A DNA stretch of 64,000 nt, taken from Perkinsus olseni. Lineage: Eukaryota; Perkinsozoa; Perkinsida; Perkinsidae. The stretch is taken from NCBI GenBank assembly GCA_013115135.1, contig JABANP010000092.1:62001-126000 (forward strand), written 5' to 3'. The translations under genes and the position numbers were made by a program. Position 1 is the first letter of the stretch; each line of letters opens with the position of its first letter. Positions 29,727-47,100 of the stretch are shown here, one piece after another. Under the pieces are notes generated by a model. It worked only from the letters and a program-made list of their open reading frames with translations, did not search any database and was not told the origin of the DNA.

Positions 29727-32700
29727 TTATTTTTCTAAAAACTTATTAACTTCTTCATTAATCCTAAAAAGGTCGGCTCGTTGGTCTTTTCCCAGGCCAG
29801 AGACGACGATGGAATCTTCTTCTCGTCCTTGAGTGTTGACAGCAGCGATGGCGGTATATCGCTGTACCTCCGGTAGTGTGAGGTGGGTGATGGTCCTCCT
29901 ACCATCAGCCATATTCCAAATATCAATATTACCCGACGTCATTAATACCAACACACCGTACCTTCTACTAAAGGCGATGCCACTTATCACATCAGCAGCC
30001 GACGATTGACGATCATCATAGTCGCCGATCTTCGCCTTACGACGCCATTCACCATCACCATCAACTTCCAACAGATATAAAGAATTATCAGGAGTAGACA
30101 CAGCCAAACTCCCTTCTCTAATATATGCTACTTTCACGACCGCAACCGGTAGCTTCCAAAGATTCGGCAGTAGCGCAATTGAGCAAACGGTCGGTGCCAT
30201 TAGCGACCATCACGTCCTCGCCGATACTCAGAAACATCACTCGGACTGAGTACAGAGCAAGGCAACCGAGGCCAGAAAAGATATGCCATCAGTTGCTACA
30301 GCTGAACCGTTGTTAGAAAAACCCAAACCAATAGGGGTGAAGAACGGCGGGAAACCGGCCGAGCGTTCTCCGGCCGATGCAGCCTTGAAAACCGGGCCTG
30401 GCAGGTCCGTACCGGTGGGAACATCAGCGCACACCAGAGCCCACCAGATAAAGTCTGAGCGAAAAACGAATCCGTCAAAGGAAGCAGGCAGACGATGAAC
30501 TCACCCAACAGTCCACACGGCAGAAATAATCGCTGAGACCTGCTTGTAGATCGACCAAGGGCGGAGACGATAATGGGTGATGTTCTTAGGGCGATCGGGG
30601 TGACGGTACTCACAAGGCTTGAGGATGACCTTCGGGCTGTCCACGCAACTGGAAAAGGAAGCTTAGTCTAGGAAGGGGAGGCGACCATCATCTCACCGGC
30701 TGGACTTGCCCTTGCCAGCCTTGCGCTCCTTCACAAATTCCTCGACATTTTCACCAAATTCATCAACCTGTTCTCGAACAATACTAGGATCAGTTACCTA
30801 TCGCCGTTGAGGAAATGCAAGAGAGCAAGTGATGCAAGTGATGAGACTCACCCCCTTGAAGCAGGACTCTTGCCAACGATCCTCTGGGGACGGCCGTTGT
30901 CCGTAATGTGCCTCCACCCACTCACCTGAGTGCTCCACTGTCACCACAAAAAGCCAACTTTCGCGGACTCACCAATTTTGCTGTGGCGGATCGACGCCCC
31001 TCGACCCTCTTCCATCAAGGCCAACTGCGAGTCCTTTCTGAGGGAGCAAAAGTCCCCACACCATCAACAGAACGATACCGCAACTTGTTTCCTGCCGACC
31101 TCTTCTCAGCGGAAGAAAAACTGTCCTGGTCAGTAAAGGGTTTAACGCCGAGCATATTTCTTTATCCTCTTTTTCGACCAGGTCATCGTCCAAACGGTCC
31201 ACTTCTCGTCGGCACTCGGGAGGGCAATAACCGTCGTTCCTTTCGAAGTCCCACTCGTAGTCGCTAGGCCTCCTACTTCCCTGAATCCACAAGAAAACTG
31301 AGTCGGAGGTTCAGTTGGAAGTCACGGGATTCTCCATCGCTATATGCTAGTCACGCAATATTTATTTGCAACTCATCATAATAATGTCAAACGTGTACAA
31401 TTCTGTGTTCGCTTGAAAAATTCCGATCGGAGAGGTCAGAGGCCACTTATGAGTATCCGCTGGAAGATTCCTAGACCGACGACATATAGCTCCCAATGGT
31501 TCATCTCCATGCCTAAAGCGTAGCCCTAGCATGCACGACCATCACCCTGTCGTCATTCACCATCCGTTCCCCACTTCCTGTGCGTCTGGTCCCAATAAGC
31601 GGGTTTTCTTTTAAATTAAAATGAGCAAGTGGCATCTTGCCCGCGCTGCAAAAGACTTACATCGATTCCCCCTTCCGTCATCTCGTGGCGAACAAAACCG
31701 TGGAACGGGTTCTCATGCAGGAGAATATCTAACGCACGCAGAAGGATAGGCGTACAGATATACCGCCATTGAAGAGCCCACCTGACGTCATCCGGACGAT
31801 ATTGAACTTGCCAGGCAAGACTTCAGTGGCCTCCAACCCTTGCAGGACCAGATAGTAATACCAGAGGCAGTGCAGGGCGATGGACGCCAGGGCTGTGTCT
31901 TCACCTGAACGGCAAAGGCGAGAACTCATGGAAGCGTTCTCTGATGCACTCGATAACTACGGAAATCAAAGATGGCACGAGAATGACTGAGGAAATGGTA
32001 TAAAGGCTGCCTCATTTTTCCAAAATTTGCATGTGGCATTCTTTTCCCGACTGTATACCTCCCTCGAACTTCGAAGCCTCGTGTGCGGTTGCAACGACAA
32101 TCTTCCTCCTCACAGGGGAGTACTCAACATTAGCCAGATCCCCTCTCCCACGCTCACCTATGGACGTCTGCCCCGCGTAGTCCAGAGTGGCGGCGGCTGC
32201 TGCAGATAGGGGCGTCAGGTAAGCCAGGACCAGCATAACGATGAGCTCGTTGTAGCTCTCGAAAGTAAGATTCATCCTCAGGTGAAGCATCGCCGCGGTG
32301 GCGATGACGACAACGAACGCCCAGGCGGCCCAGACCTCGCGATCTCCCATCATAGTAGACCTGACAGATGAACCGTTGAGGAAATGCAAGATACGACGAG
32401 AGTGCAAGATGCTCCTCACCCTAGCGCGAAATCGGCGAACGTCAATAGCATCTGGTTGTTGGCCAAGACCATGAACACACGGGCGTAGGCGTCGTAGCCC
32501 TGCCAGGATTTTTGAAGACGCTGGAAAAGGGAAAAATGCGACACAGTATACCTGAGGAGCATCGATCCGGTACCGCAGAGCCTCGAGCCAGTGAGCCCCT
32601 CACTTATCATCCTCTGCGTGGTCCATCATACCGTTCTTCCCAACATCTCGGGCGTCCTTCCGACTCGACCCCTCGTGGGCAGTCCGTCGCTGTGATAGTC

Positions 32701-33717
32701 GCCGGACGACCGGGATACGAAAAATCGATTTTATTGGGTTGCACTCGAACCTCTGATAGGAAGACCAGGATGCAAGGTGAGAGTACCCCACTCCCAACGT
32801 CCCAACAACAGCAGCCCCGACCTCGGCGGCACAAGACATGGTCTAGCTTTGACACAGCCAAGACGACAGAGAGGAGGCACCCGCGACAGGAGCAACTAAT
32901 GGACTCGGGGCCTCAACTCTTCGCCGCATCAACAAGACAGCCACAGGAGAATCTTCCCCCTCACTCACCTCGATGGTGTCAGCGGCATTGGCGATGTCAG
33001 AGGTCTTCGGTAGAGGAAGCCTGACGAGTGTGACGATGGTCTACTCGAAAGGGACGTGGCCACCGATCTCGACCCTACCGGAGCCATCGTGTGAGCAGCT
33101 TGACTTCGAGGGACTGGGCAACGATGGAGGCGTGAAGGGCGAAGCAGACAGATAGTAAAAGAAGTACAGTACTGGCAGCCAAGTTGAGAATCCTGAGGAA
33201 TAAAAATAGACGACTGCAGGGATAGAACCCACGCCCTTCTAATTGGAAGAGCGACGCCGTAACCCACTAGACTGGTCAGATGATACTCACCAGATGAACC
33301 ATAGCCACGACGGGACTTCCTTCGGTTGAGGTATATCAGGTGGTATCATACCACAATAAATAGAGTGAACACTCACAGCAAGAGCCACCGAGTTGACAGT
33401 AAGGTACGTGTCCATCCTGGAGATAGTCAGACCAAAAAGATCTCTCAAATCCTCACGATACAAATCAATCTGAAAGAAGAACGCCTCAACCCGCGTCTCA
33501 GCGACAGCGTTGACGCCCCAGAGCACCACTGTAGTACTCAGAAGGAATGCGGCTAACCTGCCTGGTCAATTCGCATATCCTGGACTTGATGGACCGCCCA
33601 TTGCCGCAGCGTTTGATCCAATACGAAGGCGGCCTTGTTATAAGAGAACAACGCCCCTGCTGAGGAGCCGGCCAGAGCAGCGACCCCCGCGACTGTTGCT
33701 GCAGCTGCGGTTGCCAT
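29727..33717 (-). pseudogene. Array copy 1: multi-pass membrane protein with propeller-like tail, frameshifted 3' exon
   Basis: Many exons on the minus strand. Exon 1 (33717-33558) begins ATAAATVAGVAALAGSSAGA after Met and contains FSYNKAAFVLDQTLRQ. Exon 2 (33528-33291) reads YREDLRDLFGLTISRMDTYL and exon 3 (33192-33079) begins ILNLAASTVLLLLSVCFALH; their phases agree. Later exons hold further membrane segments (ALASIALHCLWYYYLVLQGL; AWAFVVVIATAAMLHLRMNL; ELIVMLVLAYLTPLSAAAAA) and QKSWQGYDAYARVFMVLANN. The 3' exon encodes a beta-propeller-like tail (SLAVSTPDNSLYLLEVDGDG). Compared with copy 2 it has three single-base homopolymer gains, near 30155, 30232 and 30275, that break the frame, and a different C-terminus. 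Resembles an uncharacterised protist membrane family. Function unknown; pseudogene status assumes the indels are real. Confidence 0.62.
33212..33277 (-). other. tRNA-like sequence in intron 2 of array copy 1
   Basis: Minus strand: an A-box-like TCTAGTGGGTTAC, an anticodon-arm-like hairpin CGCTCTTC/GAAGGGCG, and a B-box-like GGGTTCTATCCC. The acceptor arms do not pair and the anticodon loop is not standard, so it is probably a tRNA pseudogene or tRNA-derived repeat. It has the same strand and position as in copy 2. Confidence 0.45.
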
Positions 33718-34179
33718 GATAATCTATTATACAAATTAAAAACAATCTTACATGCAGATCATTACAAAAATATCAGACCAATCATAAAATTATTAAATTA
33801 GCAATTAGCAATAATTTGACCTTTTCTTGATGATCTTCATTCAAGATTCTTCTAATAAGATTCAATAATGATGTAAAAACAATTATCAAATCGTATCAAA
33901 ACAGTCTTTACTGGAGATGATACGTCCCAAGCCGCCGCCATCGTCAACGCAACAATCAACATTTATCAGATTCGAAACTGGACACTAACAAGAAGGAGGA
34001 GGAGAGATAGACAACGGTCCACCATCATTGGTGTTGAACGGGTGGGACCGCTGTCTTGCCCAGAGAACGGGGCATTACTAAAGTTTAATAGAAAATCTAC
34101 GATCCCAATAACAAGGGACATCGCGGGTTAGAATATCTTAGCTTCACCATGGCAAGATACGGAATAGGTTCTTACGTAC

Positions 34180-37100
34180 TCAGTCCACTCGGACACGTAT
34201 CGCGACTGCCTGTCGATCCTTCTTCAGTCCAGAGACGATGATGGATTCTTCTTCTTGTTGTCCTTGAGTGTTGACAGCAGCAATGGCGGTATAACGCTGT
34301 ACCCCCGGTAGTGTGAGGTGGGTGATGGTCCTCCTACCATCAGCCATATTCCAAATATCAATATTACCAGACGTCATTAACACCAACACACCAAACCTTC
34401 TACTAAAGGCGATGCCACTTATCACATCAGCCGACGATTGACGATCATCATAGTCGCCGATCTTCGCCTTACGACGCCACTCCCCATCACCATCAACTTC
34501 CAATAGATATAAAGAATTATCAGGAGTGGATACAGCCAAACTCCCTTCTCTAATATATGCTACTTTCACGACCGCAACCGGTAGCTTCCAAGATTCGGCA
34601 GTAACGCAACTGAGCAAGCGGTCGGTGCCATTAGCGACCATCACGTTCTTGCCGATACTCAGAACATCACTCGGGCTGCGTACTGGACAAGGCAACCGAG
34701 GCCAGAAAGAAATGCCATCAGTTGCTACAGCTGAACCGTTGTTAGAAAAATCCAAACCAATAGGGGTGAAGAACGGCGGAAAACCGGCCGAGCTTCCTCC
34801 GGCCGATGCAGCCTTGAAAACCGGGCCTGGCAGATCCGTACCGGTGGGAACATCAGCGCACACCAGAGCCCACCAGATAAATCTGAGAAAAACGAATCCG
34901 TCAAAGGCAGCAGGCAGACGATGAACTCACCCAACAGTCCACACGGCAGAAATAATCGCTGAGACCTGCTTGTAGATCGACCACGGACGAAGACGATAAT
35001 GGGTGATGTTCTTAGGGCGATCAGGGTGAGGGTACTCACAAGGCTTCAGGATGACCTTCGGGCTGTCCACGCAACTGGAAAAGGAAGCTTAGTCTAGGAA
35101 GGGGAGGCGACTATCATCTCACCGGCTGGACTTGCCCTTGCCAGCCTTCTGCTCTTTCTCAAATTCCTCGACATTTTCACCAAATTCATCAACCTGTTCT
35201 CGAACAATACTAGGATCAGTTACCTATCGCCGTTGAGGAAATGCAAGTGATGCAAGTGATGCAAGTGATGAGACTCACCCCCTTGAAGCAGGACTCTTGC
35301 CAACGATCCTCTGGAGCCGGCCGTTGTCCGTAATGTGCCTCCACCCACTCACCTGAGTGCTCCACTGTCACCACAAAAAGCCAACTTTTGCGAACTCACC
35401 AATTTTGCTGTGGCGGATCGACGCCCCTCGACCTTCTTCCATCAAGGCTAACTGCGAGTCCTTTCTGAGGGAGCAAAAGTCCCCACACCATCAACAGAAC
35501 GATACCGCTACTTGTTTTCTGCCGGCTTCTTCTCGGCGGAAGAAAAACTGTCCTGGTCAGTAGGGTTCAACGCCGAGCATATTTCTTTATCCTCTTTTTC
35601 GACCAGGTCATCGTCCAAACGCTCCACTTCGCATCGGCACTCAGGAGGGCAATAATCGTCGTTCCTCTCGAAGTCCCACTCGTAGTCGCTAGGCCTCCTA
35701 CTTCCCTGAGTCCACAAGAAAACTGAATCTAGCCTGAATCTGCCACTAGCCTGTATTGACTCAATGCCAAGAGGAAGCGAACTACTCACCGAGTGAACCA
35801 CAGGAGAGTTCTACTGAGGATCCTAACGCCGGCAAACAGCCGGGAGTGTCGGGAGTTTTCAAACATCAAGATGAGGAACAGGCCACTTGTCCGCCCCCCG
35901 GCCCGGCAGCGCACTTACGTCGATTCCCCCTTCCGTCATCTCGTGGCGAACAAAACCGTGGAACGGATTTTCATGCAGGAGAATATCTAACGCACGCAGA
36001 AGGATACGCGTACAGATATACAGCCATTGAAGAGCCCACCCGACGTCATCCGGACGATATTGAACTTGCCAGGCAAGACCTCAGTGGCCTCCAACCCTTG
36101 CAGGACCAGATAGTGATACCAGAGGCAGTGCAAGGCGATGGACGCTAGGGCTGTGTCTTCACCTAAACAGCAAAGGCGAGAACTCACGGGAGCGTTCTCT
36201 GATGCACTCGATAACTACGGAAATCCAAAACGGCACGAAAATGACTGAGGAAGTGGCATAGTGGCTGCCTCATCTTTCCAAAATCTGCATGGGGAATTCT
36301 TTCCCGACTGTATACCTCCCTCGAACTTCGAAGCCTCGTGAGCCGTTGCAACGATAAACTTCCTCCTCACTGAGAAGTCCTCACCATTAACCGGATCCCC
36401 TCTCCCTCACCTATGGACGTCTGTCCGGCATAGTCCAGAGTGGCAGCAGCTGCTGCAGATAGAGGTGTCAGATAGGCCAGGACCAGCATGACGATGAGCT
36501 CGTTGTAGCTCTCGAAAGTAAGATTCATCCTCAGATGAAGCATCGCCGCGGTCGCGATGACGACAACGAACGCCCAGGCAGCCCAGACCTCACGGTCTCC
36601 CATCATAGTAGACCTGCCAGATGAACCGTTAAGGAAATGCAAGATACGACAAGAGTGCAAGATGCTCCTCACCCTAGCGCGAAATCGGCGAACGTCAATA
36701 GCATCTGGTTGTTGGCCAAGACCATGAACACACGGGCGCACGGTGGGGTGAGTGTGGCGGTATATCTTGAAAAAAAACTCGTTTGTTCAACTCACGATGG
36801 GGATTAAAATGTGACATCTCTTAGCTCTGTATCCGCCCTGGTTGCCGAGTTACGTGCGGGAGGGTTAGACGCATTGAAAAACGCCGAAAAACGCGAGATA
36901 TACAGCCGAGAGTGGTTCAACGGGAATGTTTTTTGTGAACCACTGCTCCCACAGAAATAGAAGTGCTGGGCTATCATAATCTGCTTCCGTAGTTTATCCG
37001 TCAATCCCGATTCGTATGACCCCGGCTATTCCCTGCAAAGAGCGATTCTGTTTTCTTTGTGCTCACCAGCACAACAGGAAGGGAGTTCCCGTTACCAGGC

Positions 37101-40100
37101 CGTCTGTGCTTGCTAAAGTGAAGCTGGTGTGGGGGGGAGGAGGCTCTTGGGATGCTGGCGCTGGAAAACTCCCCTAGCCAGATCTGTTCGGCATGCGATA
37201 TAGGCCTCGGAACCGACCCGAACAAGTACATAAAAGAGTGGGTTCGCGAAGGAGTGCGGACTCGTCAGTCACAGACTAGAGGCCCTAAAAACGGTACCAA
37301 GGGAGAGGTGCCAATGGATTGGCGGTTTTTGGCTTTCTGCGGAGGAGAGAAGGGCAAGGATTGTTTCTTCTGCTCGAATATGGGTGCGAAGAACACAAAT
37401 GCCAACAGGAGACGCGGTAAATCTGGTAGGCCTGCGAAAGTCGCTTCCAGTGAGAGTAAAGGCAAGGCGGAGGGCTCGCGGCTTGGGCAAGAGTTGGGGA
37501 GTAGCTCTAGTAGTAGCTCAACCTGCACACAGCCAGTGCTCCTACTTGTGAACAAGGACGTTCTTGGAGCTACCAGTGCTGCCGGGTCTGACGAAGTCAT
37601 TGAGTTCTCACAGCTCAGTGCTTCAGTGAAACATGCTCTACTGGTTGAGACATCCCAGAAGGAGAATCTGGCAGGTCAGGTAAGCACTGGGTGTGCTTCC
37701 GCATACCGCAAGCAGCTGGGTCAGCCTAAGGGGAAGGAACTGACTATGCCAAAACTTCATGGCAAGCCAGTGACATACCAGCAGGTCTTCTCGAAGCAGT
37801 CGAAGCCTCGGCTGACAATTGGCCTGGACTTTCTCAATCGTATTCAAACGACGGCGACTATATCTAATAGGGCGCTTGAGAGGATACGACAGCTTCTGCA
37901 CAGCGAGCTCACCTCAGTAGCAACAGTACCGTCGAAGAACGACTTGCAAGAAGATCGCGCCACGATGAAGGCTGACTGGAGGACTATGGAAATTGAAGGG
38001 GGTATCGTAGCTATGAGCAAGTCCCCTGTAGATGCTCTGAAGGACAAATATGGCTCTGGCTGCATTATACGCCTATCTGGTGATAGCGGCGGAGGCTTCT
38101 TCAAGTTGCTTGCAGCCCCTGTCAATGCAATATATTTCACACCACGGAAAATCTGATACCCATGCGCCATACCTTCTCTGCATAGGTGATGTTCCTGAAA
38201 AGCGGGAGCCCATGGCTAAGATCTGCTCGGAGCTCCGAGCCGTTTTTGAGCACTACCGGATCATTCTGAGCGGTGATATAAAGTGGCTGCAAGTAATGCT
38301 TGGTCTCACCACTACTGGCTGCCCATACTGCGTGAGCTCCGGAAGATCTGAGTCCCATCGGATGGTCTACGAAGAAGCGGGACCTCTGAGAACTACTGCC
38401 AAGTCTAAGGAGCTGGCAGTGGCCAACAAGGGGCGGGTCAAAGCTCATATACAAGGCCAGAGGTTCGAGCCGCTGTATCAATTTGAAGGTTCGCCGTACT
38501 TGGCAGTTGCTTGCCCTGTCCTTCACTTAGGAATGAATCTCGTCAAAGCGTTACTAGGGAGATATGCAAAAACTCACGAGGCCCGCCAGAAGATTCAGAA
38601 GTTTCTTAGGGACAACTATGGAGTTGCACCGTCCTTGCCCACCCTCGTCGTCAACCCTAGACCGTAAGTTTATACAGTCCCTATCCCTCACCGGGAAGGA
38701 CTGTGCTACACTGGCAACTAGAATCGCTGGGCAATCCGGCGCAGAAGCTCTGTGGGAGTCGGCAGGTTACGATGCCGAAGCGGCGACTATCATCAGGCTC
38801 TGGGGCGAGGTCCGCCATCTGGTTTACTCGGAGCATAGCACCGACGGTGAAGAGGACGGAGGGAATTGGATTGATCAAGTAGAGGGGTATCTCAGGGACA
38901 TGTCGAGAGCCGTGGCTGAGCTGGGCCTCCCAGTAACCCTGAGTCTGCATGTCACCTTGCATCACTTGCTCGATAGCCTGGAGGCTCTGGATCAAGCTGG
39001 CGTTGCTGCTTGGTCCGTGACCGAAGAAAGTGTCGAATCCCTCCATGGCGTGATCAACCGAGAGTCCAGCGTGAGCATGGTGAAGTGCATGACGACCTCA
39101 GATGCCATCAAGCATCTTGGAGTTACATACAACTCAAAGCGGCAACTGGGAAAGCCGACCAAAGGGTCACAGGTCTCCCCCAGGCCTCGTCGATCATGCG
39201 CAAAGTATAGAGATGCCCTTTCTTCCAGTAGTAGTTCCTCATCGTAATTATTTCCATCATAATTGACGTTTTTGAAGTTCAACTGGTTGCGTTATGTTGA
39301 CTGGAAGTATCGAGTGAGACCCTCCCGCACGTAACTCGGCAACCAGGGCGGATACAGAGCTAAGAGATGTCACATTTTAATCCCCATCGTGAGTTGAACA
39401 AACGAGTTTTTTTTCAAGATATACCGCCACACTCACCCCACCGTGCGGGCGTAGGCGTCGTAGCCTTGCCAGGATTTTTGCAGACGCTGGAAGAGCGAGA
39501 AATGCGACACAGTATACCTGAGGATCGATCCGGTACCGCAGAGCCTCGAGCCAGTGAGCCCCTCACTTATCATCCTCTGCGTGGTCCATCATACCGTTCT
39601 TCCCAACATCTCGGGCGTCCTTCCGACTCGACCCCTCGTGGGCAGTCCGTCGCTGTGATAGTCGCCGGACGACCGGGATACGAAAAATCGATTTTATTGG
39701 GTTGCACTCGAACCTCTGATAGGAAGAACAGAATGCAAGGTTGGAGTACCCCACTCCCCACGTCCCAACGACAGCAGCCCGGCCCAGCCTAGGCTTCTCG
39801 TCACGATCTCAGCAGCACAAGACATGGTCTAGCTTTGACACAGCCAAGACGACAGGGAGAAGGCACCCGCGACAGGAGCAACTAATGGACTCGGGGCCTC
39901 AACTCTTCGCCGCATCAACAAGACAGCCACAGGAGAATCTTCCCCCTCACTCACCTCGATGGTGTCAGCGGCATTGGCGATGTCAGAGGTCTTCGGTAGA
40001 GGAAGCCTGACGAGTGTGACGATGGTCTACTCGAAAGGGACGTGGCCACCGATCTCGACCCTACCGGAGCCATCGTGTGAGCAGCTTGACTTCGAGGGAC

Positions 40101-44100: not shown

Positions 44101-47100
44101 TCATCACATCTGAACGCAGAGAATCGTCAAGAGTCAAATCCGAAAACTCATTTTCACCGAGCTCAACCTCTCCGAGGAATTTTCGAGCAATCGCTTTTCC
44201 CACTGGGAGAACGAAGCGATCCCTAGTAGCAACCTACCTCTCTATTTTACGTCCTTATCCCACTGTTCTATCAAACGACAATTAATTTACCCCGCAATTT
44301 CTAAACCAGGACAAATATTCTAGGAAGCGAAGAGCCTTGAGGAATCCTAACTTAGGATTCCTAAGATTAACTCTTCATCAACTCTCTTCATCTATTTGCG
44401 TTGTGATTACTTTTACGGGTGATCTAATTTTACTCATCTACAGCAGTATCTTCAACACATATAGTTACAAGTATCTCTACGACTTAGAATGACACCAATG
44501 ACATAGACGATGATAGAGCCCGTGGCGTCAGACGAAAATCGCCTTCCACCGCAATTTCGACTCTAGAAAAAACAATGATCATCAAATTCCTTCCGCCATT
44601 ACCAGAAGAGATGTCTACGGTGTTGAACTTTTCCGGCAGACCTCCCCGAGACTCCATCGCCTGGGCGAATACAAAGCACATCCAAAGGTCATTCAGGACG
44701 AAAGATATCAGAGCCCAGACACGACCTGAGAAAAGAAGGATACTCACTACTCCGAAACTGGGCGAAAAAATCCGAATTTGTGAGTAATTTACCCGCTGTT
44801 ATCCAGCCAGCATAGTCCATAGTAGCCGCCACGCCAGCTGTCAAAGGGGCTGCGTAAATAAGGGCGACCATGATTATCAACTCCCATTTGGTGAGGGTCA
44901 AATTAATTCGGAAATGTAGCATCGCTCCCGTCGCCACGACGACGATGAACACCCATGCTGCCCAGGGTTGTCGATCTCCAATCAGAGTGGACCTACAAGA
45001 CACTTCATGATTTGGCGAAAGTATGGTATAATAATATATCACAGATCTAACAATGACCTAACAGAGTCTTCAAATGCTAATTCTCAAGTTAGCAGGGCGG
45101 CCCTGCCAGGGCCACACGGACGGTCACACACGGGAAGCAGAACACCAACGCGTGACTGGGTCGTTAGGAAGAGCGAAGGACCACAAGACGAACGTGAAGG
45201 AGATGCTCGAGAAGCATCCGGAAGCTGTGCAAGACACAACGCTACCTTCGCGTGGATCATCTCTCGCCACCGACGAGAAAAATAACAACCCGAAATAATA
45301 TGATCGTATCAACCCCGTAATTCCCAACATCCGCCCGAAAAGCGATTACTACCCCAGGGCGAAGATGCATAGCGTTGAGGAGAAGCTGGTTGGTACCGAC
45401 GGCCATGCAGACTCTCGCGTAAGCGTCATAACCCTGCCAGGACTTCTGAACGTGCTGGAACAACTTAAAGTGGATGTGATACCTGCCAAAACCCTCAGTG
45501 ACTCCGATATTGTCGATACCATGGTGACACGGACGAGTGTGTCACCATACACAAAACGACGCTTTGATCCATCTAGAGACCTAGTGCAGCTCATAAGACG
45601 CTTTCTGACATGTACCCTGGCACTGCTGTTTCTCGAAAAGCTACCAAAATTCGCCCAAATCACGTCAGATTACAGCGACTATTCAAACGAAGCACGTCTA
45701 TCAATATGACAATTAATGCTACACCAAAAAACTCAAAGCCCTGAAGCGCTAAGCCTACACAAATAAGTCTCCAGGCGCTACCTAGCAACAGCAGTGGACT
45801 ATGATTCTCAATACTACCAGTCCCATCCAAGTCAACGCGGAAGCCCTCTCGTTCAACCATTTTAGGAAGCGAGACGTAATCACTTCCCATATTACAATCG
45901 GTCTCCCTCGCCGCTGACTCTGCCGTCCTTATCAACCTTCGTGTAATCGTCCATGTCCACTTTCTTCCGCCGGGGGTCCAGACGCTGCAGCCCTGGTATT
46001 CGTAGAATAGACGACACTGGACAACACTCGTAGTCCTACAATAAGAAGCCATCATAAAATATCTAATTTACCACTACTGTATCCTGTATCACAATCTGAG
46101 ATCCAATTCAATAAGTTGTGCATTCAATAATACCACACGTTACTCAAACTGCCCATAAAACTGAGCAAGTAGCCCACGTCGCTCAATCCCAGCCAGAAAT
46201 CTACTGAACGGTAGAAGTTGAAGAGTTGAGTAAATATTCTAGTACTACGAAGAACTCAGGAAGTACAAGCTGATCGCCAATGGCAACCCTTTGGTCGCCG
46301 GCAAGCTCTCCCGTAAACTACACGCCATCTTCAAAATTTACAGGACCACAAATTGCCCAAATACATGAATAAACGAGAAAGACATTCCGAGGGCTCCTCT
46401 CCTTCGACGCTTCCCATCAGCCCTTCACCAGTACCCCTAGTTTTCCCACGACAAGTTCGAATTTTCTACATTCCGATTCGAGCCAAAACCCTGTAGTACC
46501 TCAATAGTAGCCGATGCAGCCGCGATATCCTCGGTCCGAGGCAATGGCAACCTGACGAGAACGCAGTTTAATTAAATTACAGTTCTGCAAGGCTTAGTGG
46601 TTATGTGCGGTCAAAGTAATTACCCTAAATTCAGGCCTAGATGAAATTATTCATTTTCCTTTTTTTCAAATTAATTGAAGTATTCAGATTAGAAAATCTC
46701 CTTATATAGAATCTCTGGATTCATCTTCCAGCAACTCCCTCTTCGCATCGCCCGCGAATTCTCGTTGCCCTTTCATAAAATTTCAGCCAATAGTATGGTG
46801 GGATGGTAGTTATGAAAAACTTGTGTACAACTTCCGGTATTTTTCATTTCCAGTAAGTTTGCTGAATAGCTCATTCGCGTTTGAATTACCAACGAAATGA
46901 AAACTCACGCAACGAAATCTTCATTGACTTTTTCACGGAAGATGGTAGAGTACAATATTCTGAGAACAAATTTCGGCGCACTTGAAATTAAGGATATTTA
47001 CAACGCGTTATTTCCTGAACCACAGTTCAGAATCGCTCAGTGAGCGACGCTCACGATTTTTCTCAGCATCTCCCCGGAAAGTTCGAAAATCTTGAGTACC

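What the first reader, a model, noticed from the sequence alone, without database searches (positions are those of the whole stretch)
36739..39445. A 2.7-kb transposon in a coding exon can be spliced out as an intron, leaving a 42-nt in-frame scar
The element lies inside the exon RLQKSWQGYDAYAR/VFMVLANN of array copy 2, opposite in strand. Read on the host strand, its first inverted repeat begins CACGGTGGG/GTGAGTGTGG, a consensus donor after 9 nt. Its last repeat contains GTTTTTTTTCAAG/ATATACCGCC, a pyrimidine tract and AG followed by 27 nt to the end. Splicing there retains 9 + 27 + 6 (target duplication) = 42 nt. The resulting frame has no stop and rejoins the conserved exon exactly in phase, adding 14 residues. 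Unspliced, the frame ends within five codons. This is the logic of introners (intron-generating transposons described in Micromonas and Aureococcus), here apparently in a full-size, transposase-encoding element.
Basis: partly seen in the sequence, partly recalled or inferred. Interest (0 to 1): 0.92.

Follow-up and report, generated by a model that had tools for sequence, protein, structure and literature searches.

The report
RAG-like transposon with splice-site ends
A jumping gene whose enzyme resembles our antibody-gene recombinase sits inside a coding exon of a shellfish parasite, and its ends carry sequences that resemble intron borders, so the cell might sometimes cut it out of the RNA; no RNA evidence was available.

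Summary
A 2,707-bp DNA transposon with 127-bp identical inverted repeats and a 6-bp target duplication interrupts a conserved exon of gene copy 2 in Perkinsus olseni. The proposed splice leaves 42 nt with no stop. The introner reading is only partly supported. The donor is strong; the acceptor is weak (it ends AAG, seen in 1 of 50 reference introns), and the pair ranks 10th of 247. The best pair joins the repeat's donor to the next exon's acceptor, also in frame but losing residues. The intron would be 2.7 kb against 44-903 nt in the reference set. The family has five insertions, none shown to be an intron, so introner membership is not met. Random ends do as well in 2.8% of trials (1% also in frame). 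The antisense nonamer is the pyrimidine tract of the predicted acceptor; an AG lies 27 nt from the end in four of five. New variant of a known kind; splicing plausible, unproven.

The parts
36739..39445 (+). whole transposon, 2,707 bp, transposase on + strand, antisense to host gene
36739..36865 (+). first inverted repeat, 127 bp
   Evidence: identical to the other end over 127 bases
39319..39445 (-). second inverted repeat, 127 bp
36733..36738 (.). target duplication CGGGCG, first copy
39446..39451 (.). target duplication CGGGCG, second copy
36739..36745 (+). heptamer CACGGTG (recombination-signal-like); mirror copy at 39439-39445
36770..36778 (+). A-rich nonamer-like AAAAAAAAC, 24 nt after the heptamer; mirror copy at 39406-39414; its antisense is the pyrimidine tract of the predicted acceptor
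39437..39445 (-). 9 nt that would be kept before the donor
39431..39436 (-). donor GTGAGT, 8.13 bits, above 37 of 50 reference donors, third of 154 GTs in the region
36766..36767 (-).
36739..36765 (-). 27 nt that would be kept after the acceptor
36614..36615 (-). AG of the next exon's natural acceptor, 11.69 bits, best AG in the region; pairs in frame with the repeat's donor
39446..39517 (-). 5' part of the interrupted host exon
   Evidence: spliced alignment to P0005
36673..36738 (-). 3' part of the interrupted host exon
37122..38156 (+). transposase reading frame, piece 1; the frame is broken in this copy, an uninterrupted 754-codon frame exists in the C94 copy
38041..38667 (+). transposase reading frame, piece 2
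38558..39247 (+). transposase reading frame, piece 3
32480..32485 (.). empty target site CGGGCG in paralogous copy 1

Best explanation
A recently moved cut-and-paste transposon of RAG1/Transib-like type in Perkinsus olseni. Its transposase recognises ends built as a CAC heptamer, 24-25 nt, and an A-rich nonamer, and inserts at CG-rich targets, which takes it into coding exons. Here it landed in a conserved exon of one copy of a tandem gene family. Two features of the ends make it look like an intron on the host strand: the antisense nonamer is a pyrimidine tract followed by AG 27 nt from the edge, and in this family the spacer also contains GGGGTGAGT. Shown: anatomy, insertion, copy identity, fold match, motif layout, site scores, frames. 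Inferred: transposition mechanism, end recognition, any actual splicing, and that CG-rich targeting explains exon insertion.
Confidence: 0.65

Rival explanations
1. True introner-like behaviour: the ends are selected as splice sites and the element is removed efficiently and precisely from mRNA, leaving 14 extra residues. (The rivals overlap with each other and with the main explanation, so the figures do not sum to one.)
For: Donor above 37 of 50 reference donors; scar a multiple of 3 and open in all three frames; the rest of copy 2 aligns to P0005 (residues 1-820 of 827) with no frameshift; an AG 27 nt from the end in 4 of 5 families; published introners that carry both sites and add codons; C182, a diverged relative, keeps GT at +9 at both ends.
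Against: Acceptor AAG in 1 of 50 introns, rank 24 of 195; pair rank 10 of 247; intron about 2.67 kb against 44-903 nt; donors weak in the four other families; C182 has no AG at 27 at one end and -0.43 bits at the other; only five insertions; chance about 1-3% before counting where else one could have looked; no scar peptide in 22 related proteins.
Confidence: 0.15
2. Accident only: a recent insertion that knocks out copy 2. The resemblance to splice sites is chance plus base composition, and transcripts end early or are degraded.
For: 2.8% of random ends score as well; unspliced frame stops after three codons; the gene is one of several tandem paralogues, so loss could be tolerated; near-identical copies mean there was little time for selection.
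Against: Strong donor; AG at the same distance in two deep lineages; copy 2 otherwise without frameshifts, although a very recent insertion explains that too.
Confidence: 0.45
3. Removal from mRNA by recognition of the paired inverted repeats, as in the SOS splicing described for animal DNA transposons, independent of splice sites.
For: A perfect 127-bp inverted repeat flanks about 2.45 kb; SOS splicing is described in a review (PMC13247085, passages); that it acts through paired repeats is recalled, not in the passages seen.
Against: Described there as metazoan; not tested here whether Perkinsus has the factors.
Confidence: 0.07
4. Skipping of the whole interrupted exon (39566 to 36614) restores the frame with a loss of 44 residues.
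For: The introns on both sides are phase 2; the skipped product is open, pair rank 3 of 247; the annotated model P0010 of the neighbouring paralogue leaves out the homologous exon.
Against: Needs skipping of an exon carrying a strong internal donor; the P0010 case may be an annotation artefact.
Confidence: 0.15

Closest known systems
Transib / RAG1-like transposons, including AanRAGL of Aureococcus
   Same: RAG1/HzTransib-like fold, DDE plus CxxC and HxxxxH, CAC-type heptamer and A-rich nonamer at a 23-RSS-like distance, short CG-rich duplications
   Different: no detectable sequence similarity; 127-bp perfect repeats; 6-bp duplication in this family, 5 bp in three relatives; no RAG2-like gene noticed in the element, not searched for by model; a splice donor in the spacer
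Introners (Aureococcus kind that carries both splice sites)
   Same: ends carry donor and acceptor and would leave extra in-frame codons
   Different: full-length transposase-coding element, five insertions, not shown to be introns; published family medians are 30-654 nt
Introners of Amoebophrya (a related alveolate)
   Same: repeat-bounded elements in an alveolate (PMC7789003, passages)
   Different: those authors argued against general transposase-driven spread; non-canonical introns there
Maize Ac and Spm ends that mimic splice sites
   Same: ends of a DNA transposon sometimes recognised as intron ends (passage in PMC4219821)
   Different: other superfamilies and another kingdom; only predicted here
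Dada transposons (known in Perkinsus marinus)
   Same: 6-7 bp duplications, intronless transposase in Perkinsus, DDE enzyme (PMC3706591, passages and outline)
   Different: Dada-U6 and Dada-U1 lack terminal inverted repeats, complete Dadas are 4.7-11 kb and those with clear ends sit in small-RNA genes

Membership tests
Introner | several near-identical copies that coincide with introns of genes | tested here: not met
   9 repeat ends = 5 insertions genome-wide with up to 3 mismatches; 1 of 5 demonstrably in a coding exon; no copy shown to be an intron (undecided for C94, C60, C182). The published lower bound is 5 copies per family, so the failing part is coincidence with introns
Introner | spliced out of mature mRNA | not testable with these tools
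   no RNA reads available
Introner | ends supply or create functional splice sites | tested here: inconclusive
   donor 8.13 bits strong, acceptor 4.15 bits weak; better pair elsewhere
Transib/RAG1-like | RAG1/Transib transposase fold | tested here: met
Transib/RAG1-like | DDE triad with CxxC and HxxxxH zinc residues (RAG1 counterparts recalled) | tested here: met
   unchanged in this family and four distant ones, rows with letters 7 or 8 of 8
Transib/RAG1-like | recombination-signal-like ends: CAC heptamer, about 23-nt spacer, A-rich nonamer (standard recalled) | tested here: met
   5 of 5 families at spacer 24-25, C188 by one end only, C56 with a variant heptamer; random rate 901 of 200,000
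Transib/RAG1-like | 5-bp target duplication | tested here: not met
   6 bp in 4 of 4 two-ended insertions of this family; 5 bp in 3 of 3 relatives. I therefore call it Transib-like, not a Transib
Transib/RAG1-like | sequence homology to known Transib or RAG1 proteins | tested here: inconclusive
   no hit by Pfam, PDB sequence or protein search; sensitivity limited
Dada | no terminal inverted repeats, insertion in small-RNA genes | tested here: not met
   127-bp repeats and a protein-coding target

The most novel reading that the evidence does not exclude
Recombination-signal-type ends are pre-adapted to become introns: the antisense of the nonamer is a ready-made pyrimidine tract, an AG sits 27 nt from the edge in 4 of 5 Perkinsus families, and one family has gained a consensus donor in the spacer, so a full-size, transposase-encoding RAG-like transposon can be removed from mRNA in frame. 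RAG-like, CG-targeting transposons would then be a natural source of introners, and this is one caught at the first step.
Probability: 0.2. Interest if true: 0.85.

Novelty: new variant of a known kind. Interest (0 to 1): 0.55.

Why it matters
It offers a concrete, testable link between two open questions: how autonomous transposons turn into introners, and how widely RAG-like transposons spread outside animals. The introner survey suggested that transposons biased to GC-rich genic sites come under selection for splicing (PMC9860276 section 9 passage); a CG-targeting RAG-like element with splice-like ends in an exon is the kind of intermediate that idea predicts. RAG-like transposons are already reported in the alga Aureococcus, as fragments in other simple eukaryotes, and Transib-like proteins in bacteria, fungi and plants (PMC9435367 passages), so presence outside animals is not new in itself. 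I saw no report of them in Perkinsus in my searches (of these, 69 and 72 listed only 15 of 459 and 20 of 62 papers). One search listed two papers holding both words; in the passages seen, one is about Merlin in Perkinsus and one about Dada.

Full report
What is there. The element spans 36739-39445, 2,707 bp, with ends identical over 127 bases. CGGGCG flanks it on both sides and occurs once at the matching place of copy 1, 32480-32485. The transposase frame is on the + strand; the host gene is on the minus strand. The genome is Perkinsus olseni: proteins FOZ60_016872 (P0009) and P0010 are annotated on a contig of 149,943 bases, the length of this contig.

The host. Alignment of P0009 or P0005 places 14 introns in copy 1. 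The interrupted exon (39517-39446 and 36738-36673) carries YDAYAR|VFMVLANN. Of the 22 proteins found with the host query, 15 contain YDAYARVF or YDAYARVC across the insertion point, so the exon is real and conserved. None of the 22 contains the scar peptide. The label 'pumilio domain member 4' has no Pfam hit at E<=0.1 in P0005 or P0016. Copy 2 aligns to residues 1-820 of P0005 (827) without a frameshift event, while copy 1 shows five, four of them in its last part.

The splice prediction. Reference: 50 introns from four alignments of annotated P. olseni proteins to this genome. Acceptors are CAG 40, TAG 9, AAG 1. The element's donor GGG|GTGAGT scores 8.13 bits, above 37 of 50 real donors and third of 154 GTs in the region 39520-36600. 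Its acceptor scores 4.15 bits, above 12 of 50 and 24th of 195 AGs; several stronger ones lie inside the element. The best pair, 39436 to 36614, is also in frame: it drops 19 residues and adds T-V. Exon skipping, third, is in frame too and drops 44. Against the best pair: the natural 59-nt intron 36672-36614 competes for that acceptor. Intron lengths run from 44 to 903 nt in the 38 introns of the first three alignments and in the wider set of 55; this one would be about 2,670.

Chance. Treating random 127-nt segments of the window outside the element as perfect repeats, 1,063 of 38,096 reach the observed summed score, 362 of those with a multiple of three, 340 of these open in at least one frame and 79 in all three. 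So the signal is suggestive at the percent level, before allowing for the choice of what to look at.

The family. With up to three mismatches the 22-nt end occurs nine times, control zero: five insertions, in C912 (the window), C94, C60, C421 (one end) and C182. Window and C94 copies are 99.8% identical; C60 is a 716-bp deletion derivative; C182 is a 411-bp relative at 79-89% over the matched parts. A further degenerate piece lies in C602. Only the window copy is demonstrably in a coding exon. The window copy's transposase frame is broken, and the C94 copy is open for 754 codons. In C182 the GT at +9 is kept at both ends (8.98 and 5.69 bits), but one end has no AG at 27 and the other end's AG scores -0.43. 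That is not the pattern of firmly maintained splice sites.

The link between the two. On the host strand the antisense nonamer is a run of T, and an AG follows it 27 nt from the edge in window, C56, C316 (26 at its other end) and C188, not in C273; the acceptor scores are 4.15, 11.99, 6.39, 7.66 and none. C56, C316 and C188 are close relatives (54-58% identical proteins), so this is really two lineages and could be chance or a demand of transposase binding. A strong donor exists only in the window family; the others reach at most 3.15 bits. Thus the acceptor half may come with the recombination-signal layout, while the donor half looks like a family-specific gain or accident.

Compared with what is known. 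Introners with both splice sites and an added 12 bp exist (PMC9860276 section 7, read in full). Ac and Spm ends are said to mimic splice sites sometimes (PMC4219821 passages). Removal of transposons from animal mRNA by another route is reviewed in PMC13247085 (passages). RAG-like transposons outside animals are known from Aureococcus (PMC9435367 passages). New here, as far as my searches go (listings capped), are a RAG/Transib-like clade in Perkinsus and splice-like signals inside its recombination-signal-type ends.

Verdict. These two numbers are judgement, not computed.

Noticed in passing
L010:4386-4680: The upstream flank of the C94 copy is a dispersed repeat of about 290 bp: 42 matches including itself, with only 40 of 102 candidate places scored.
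   Followed up: no
P0004 (P. chesapeaki annotation): A gene model joins an S28 peptidase (Pfam PF05577) with a transposase of this clade, suggesting another insertion in or beside a gene.
   Followed up: no
P0007 (P. olseni FOZ62, contig 3,540 bases): The annotated protein of a paralogue starts at the M three residues after this insertion site; the contig may end in a repeat there.
   Followed up: no
L042:2497-4807: A distant relative with the same kind of ends lies at the edge of an open frame for a secreted-type protein and has no usable donor or acceptor near its ends.
   Followed up: partly
L043:2489-4893: Another relative overlaps the end of a reverse-transcriptase-like open frame, so it probably sits in a retroelement; the label is by eye.
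   Followed up: no
window 29727-33900 (copy 1): Copy 1 shows five frameshift events against P0005, four of them near its 3' end, whereas copy 2 shows none; decay or assembly error.
   Followed up: partly
window 45374-45472: The homologous exon of the next paralogue is left out of the annotated model P0010.
   Followed up: partly
L062 around 2542: A solitary element end with heptamer and A-tract in C206; no partner end found in the 2.65 kb fetched.
   Followed up: partly
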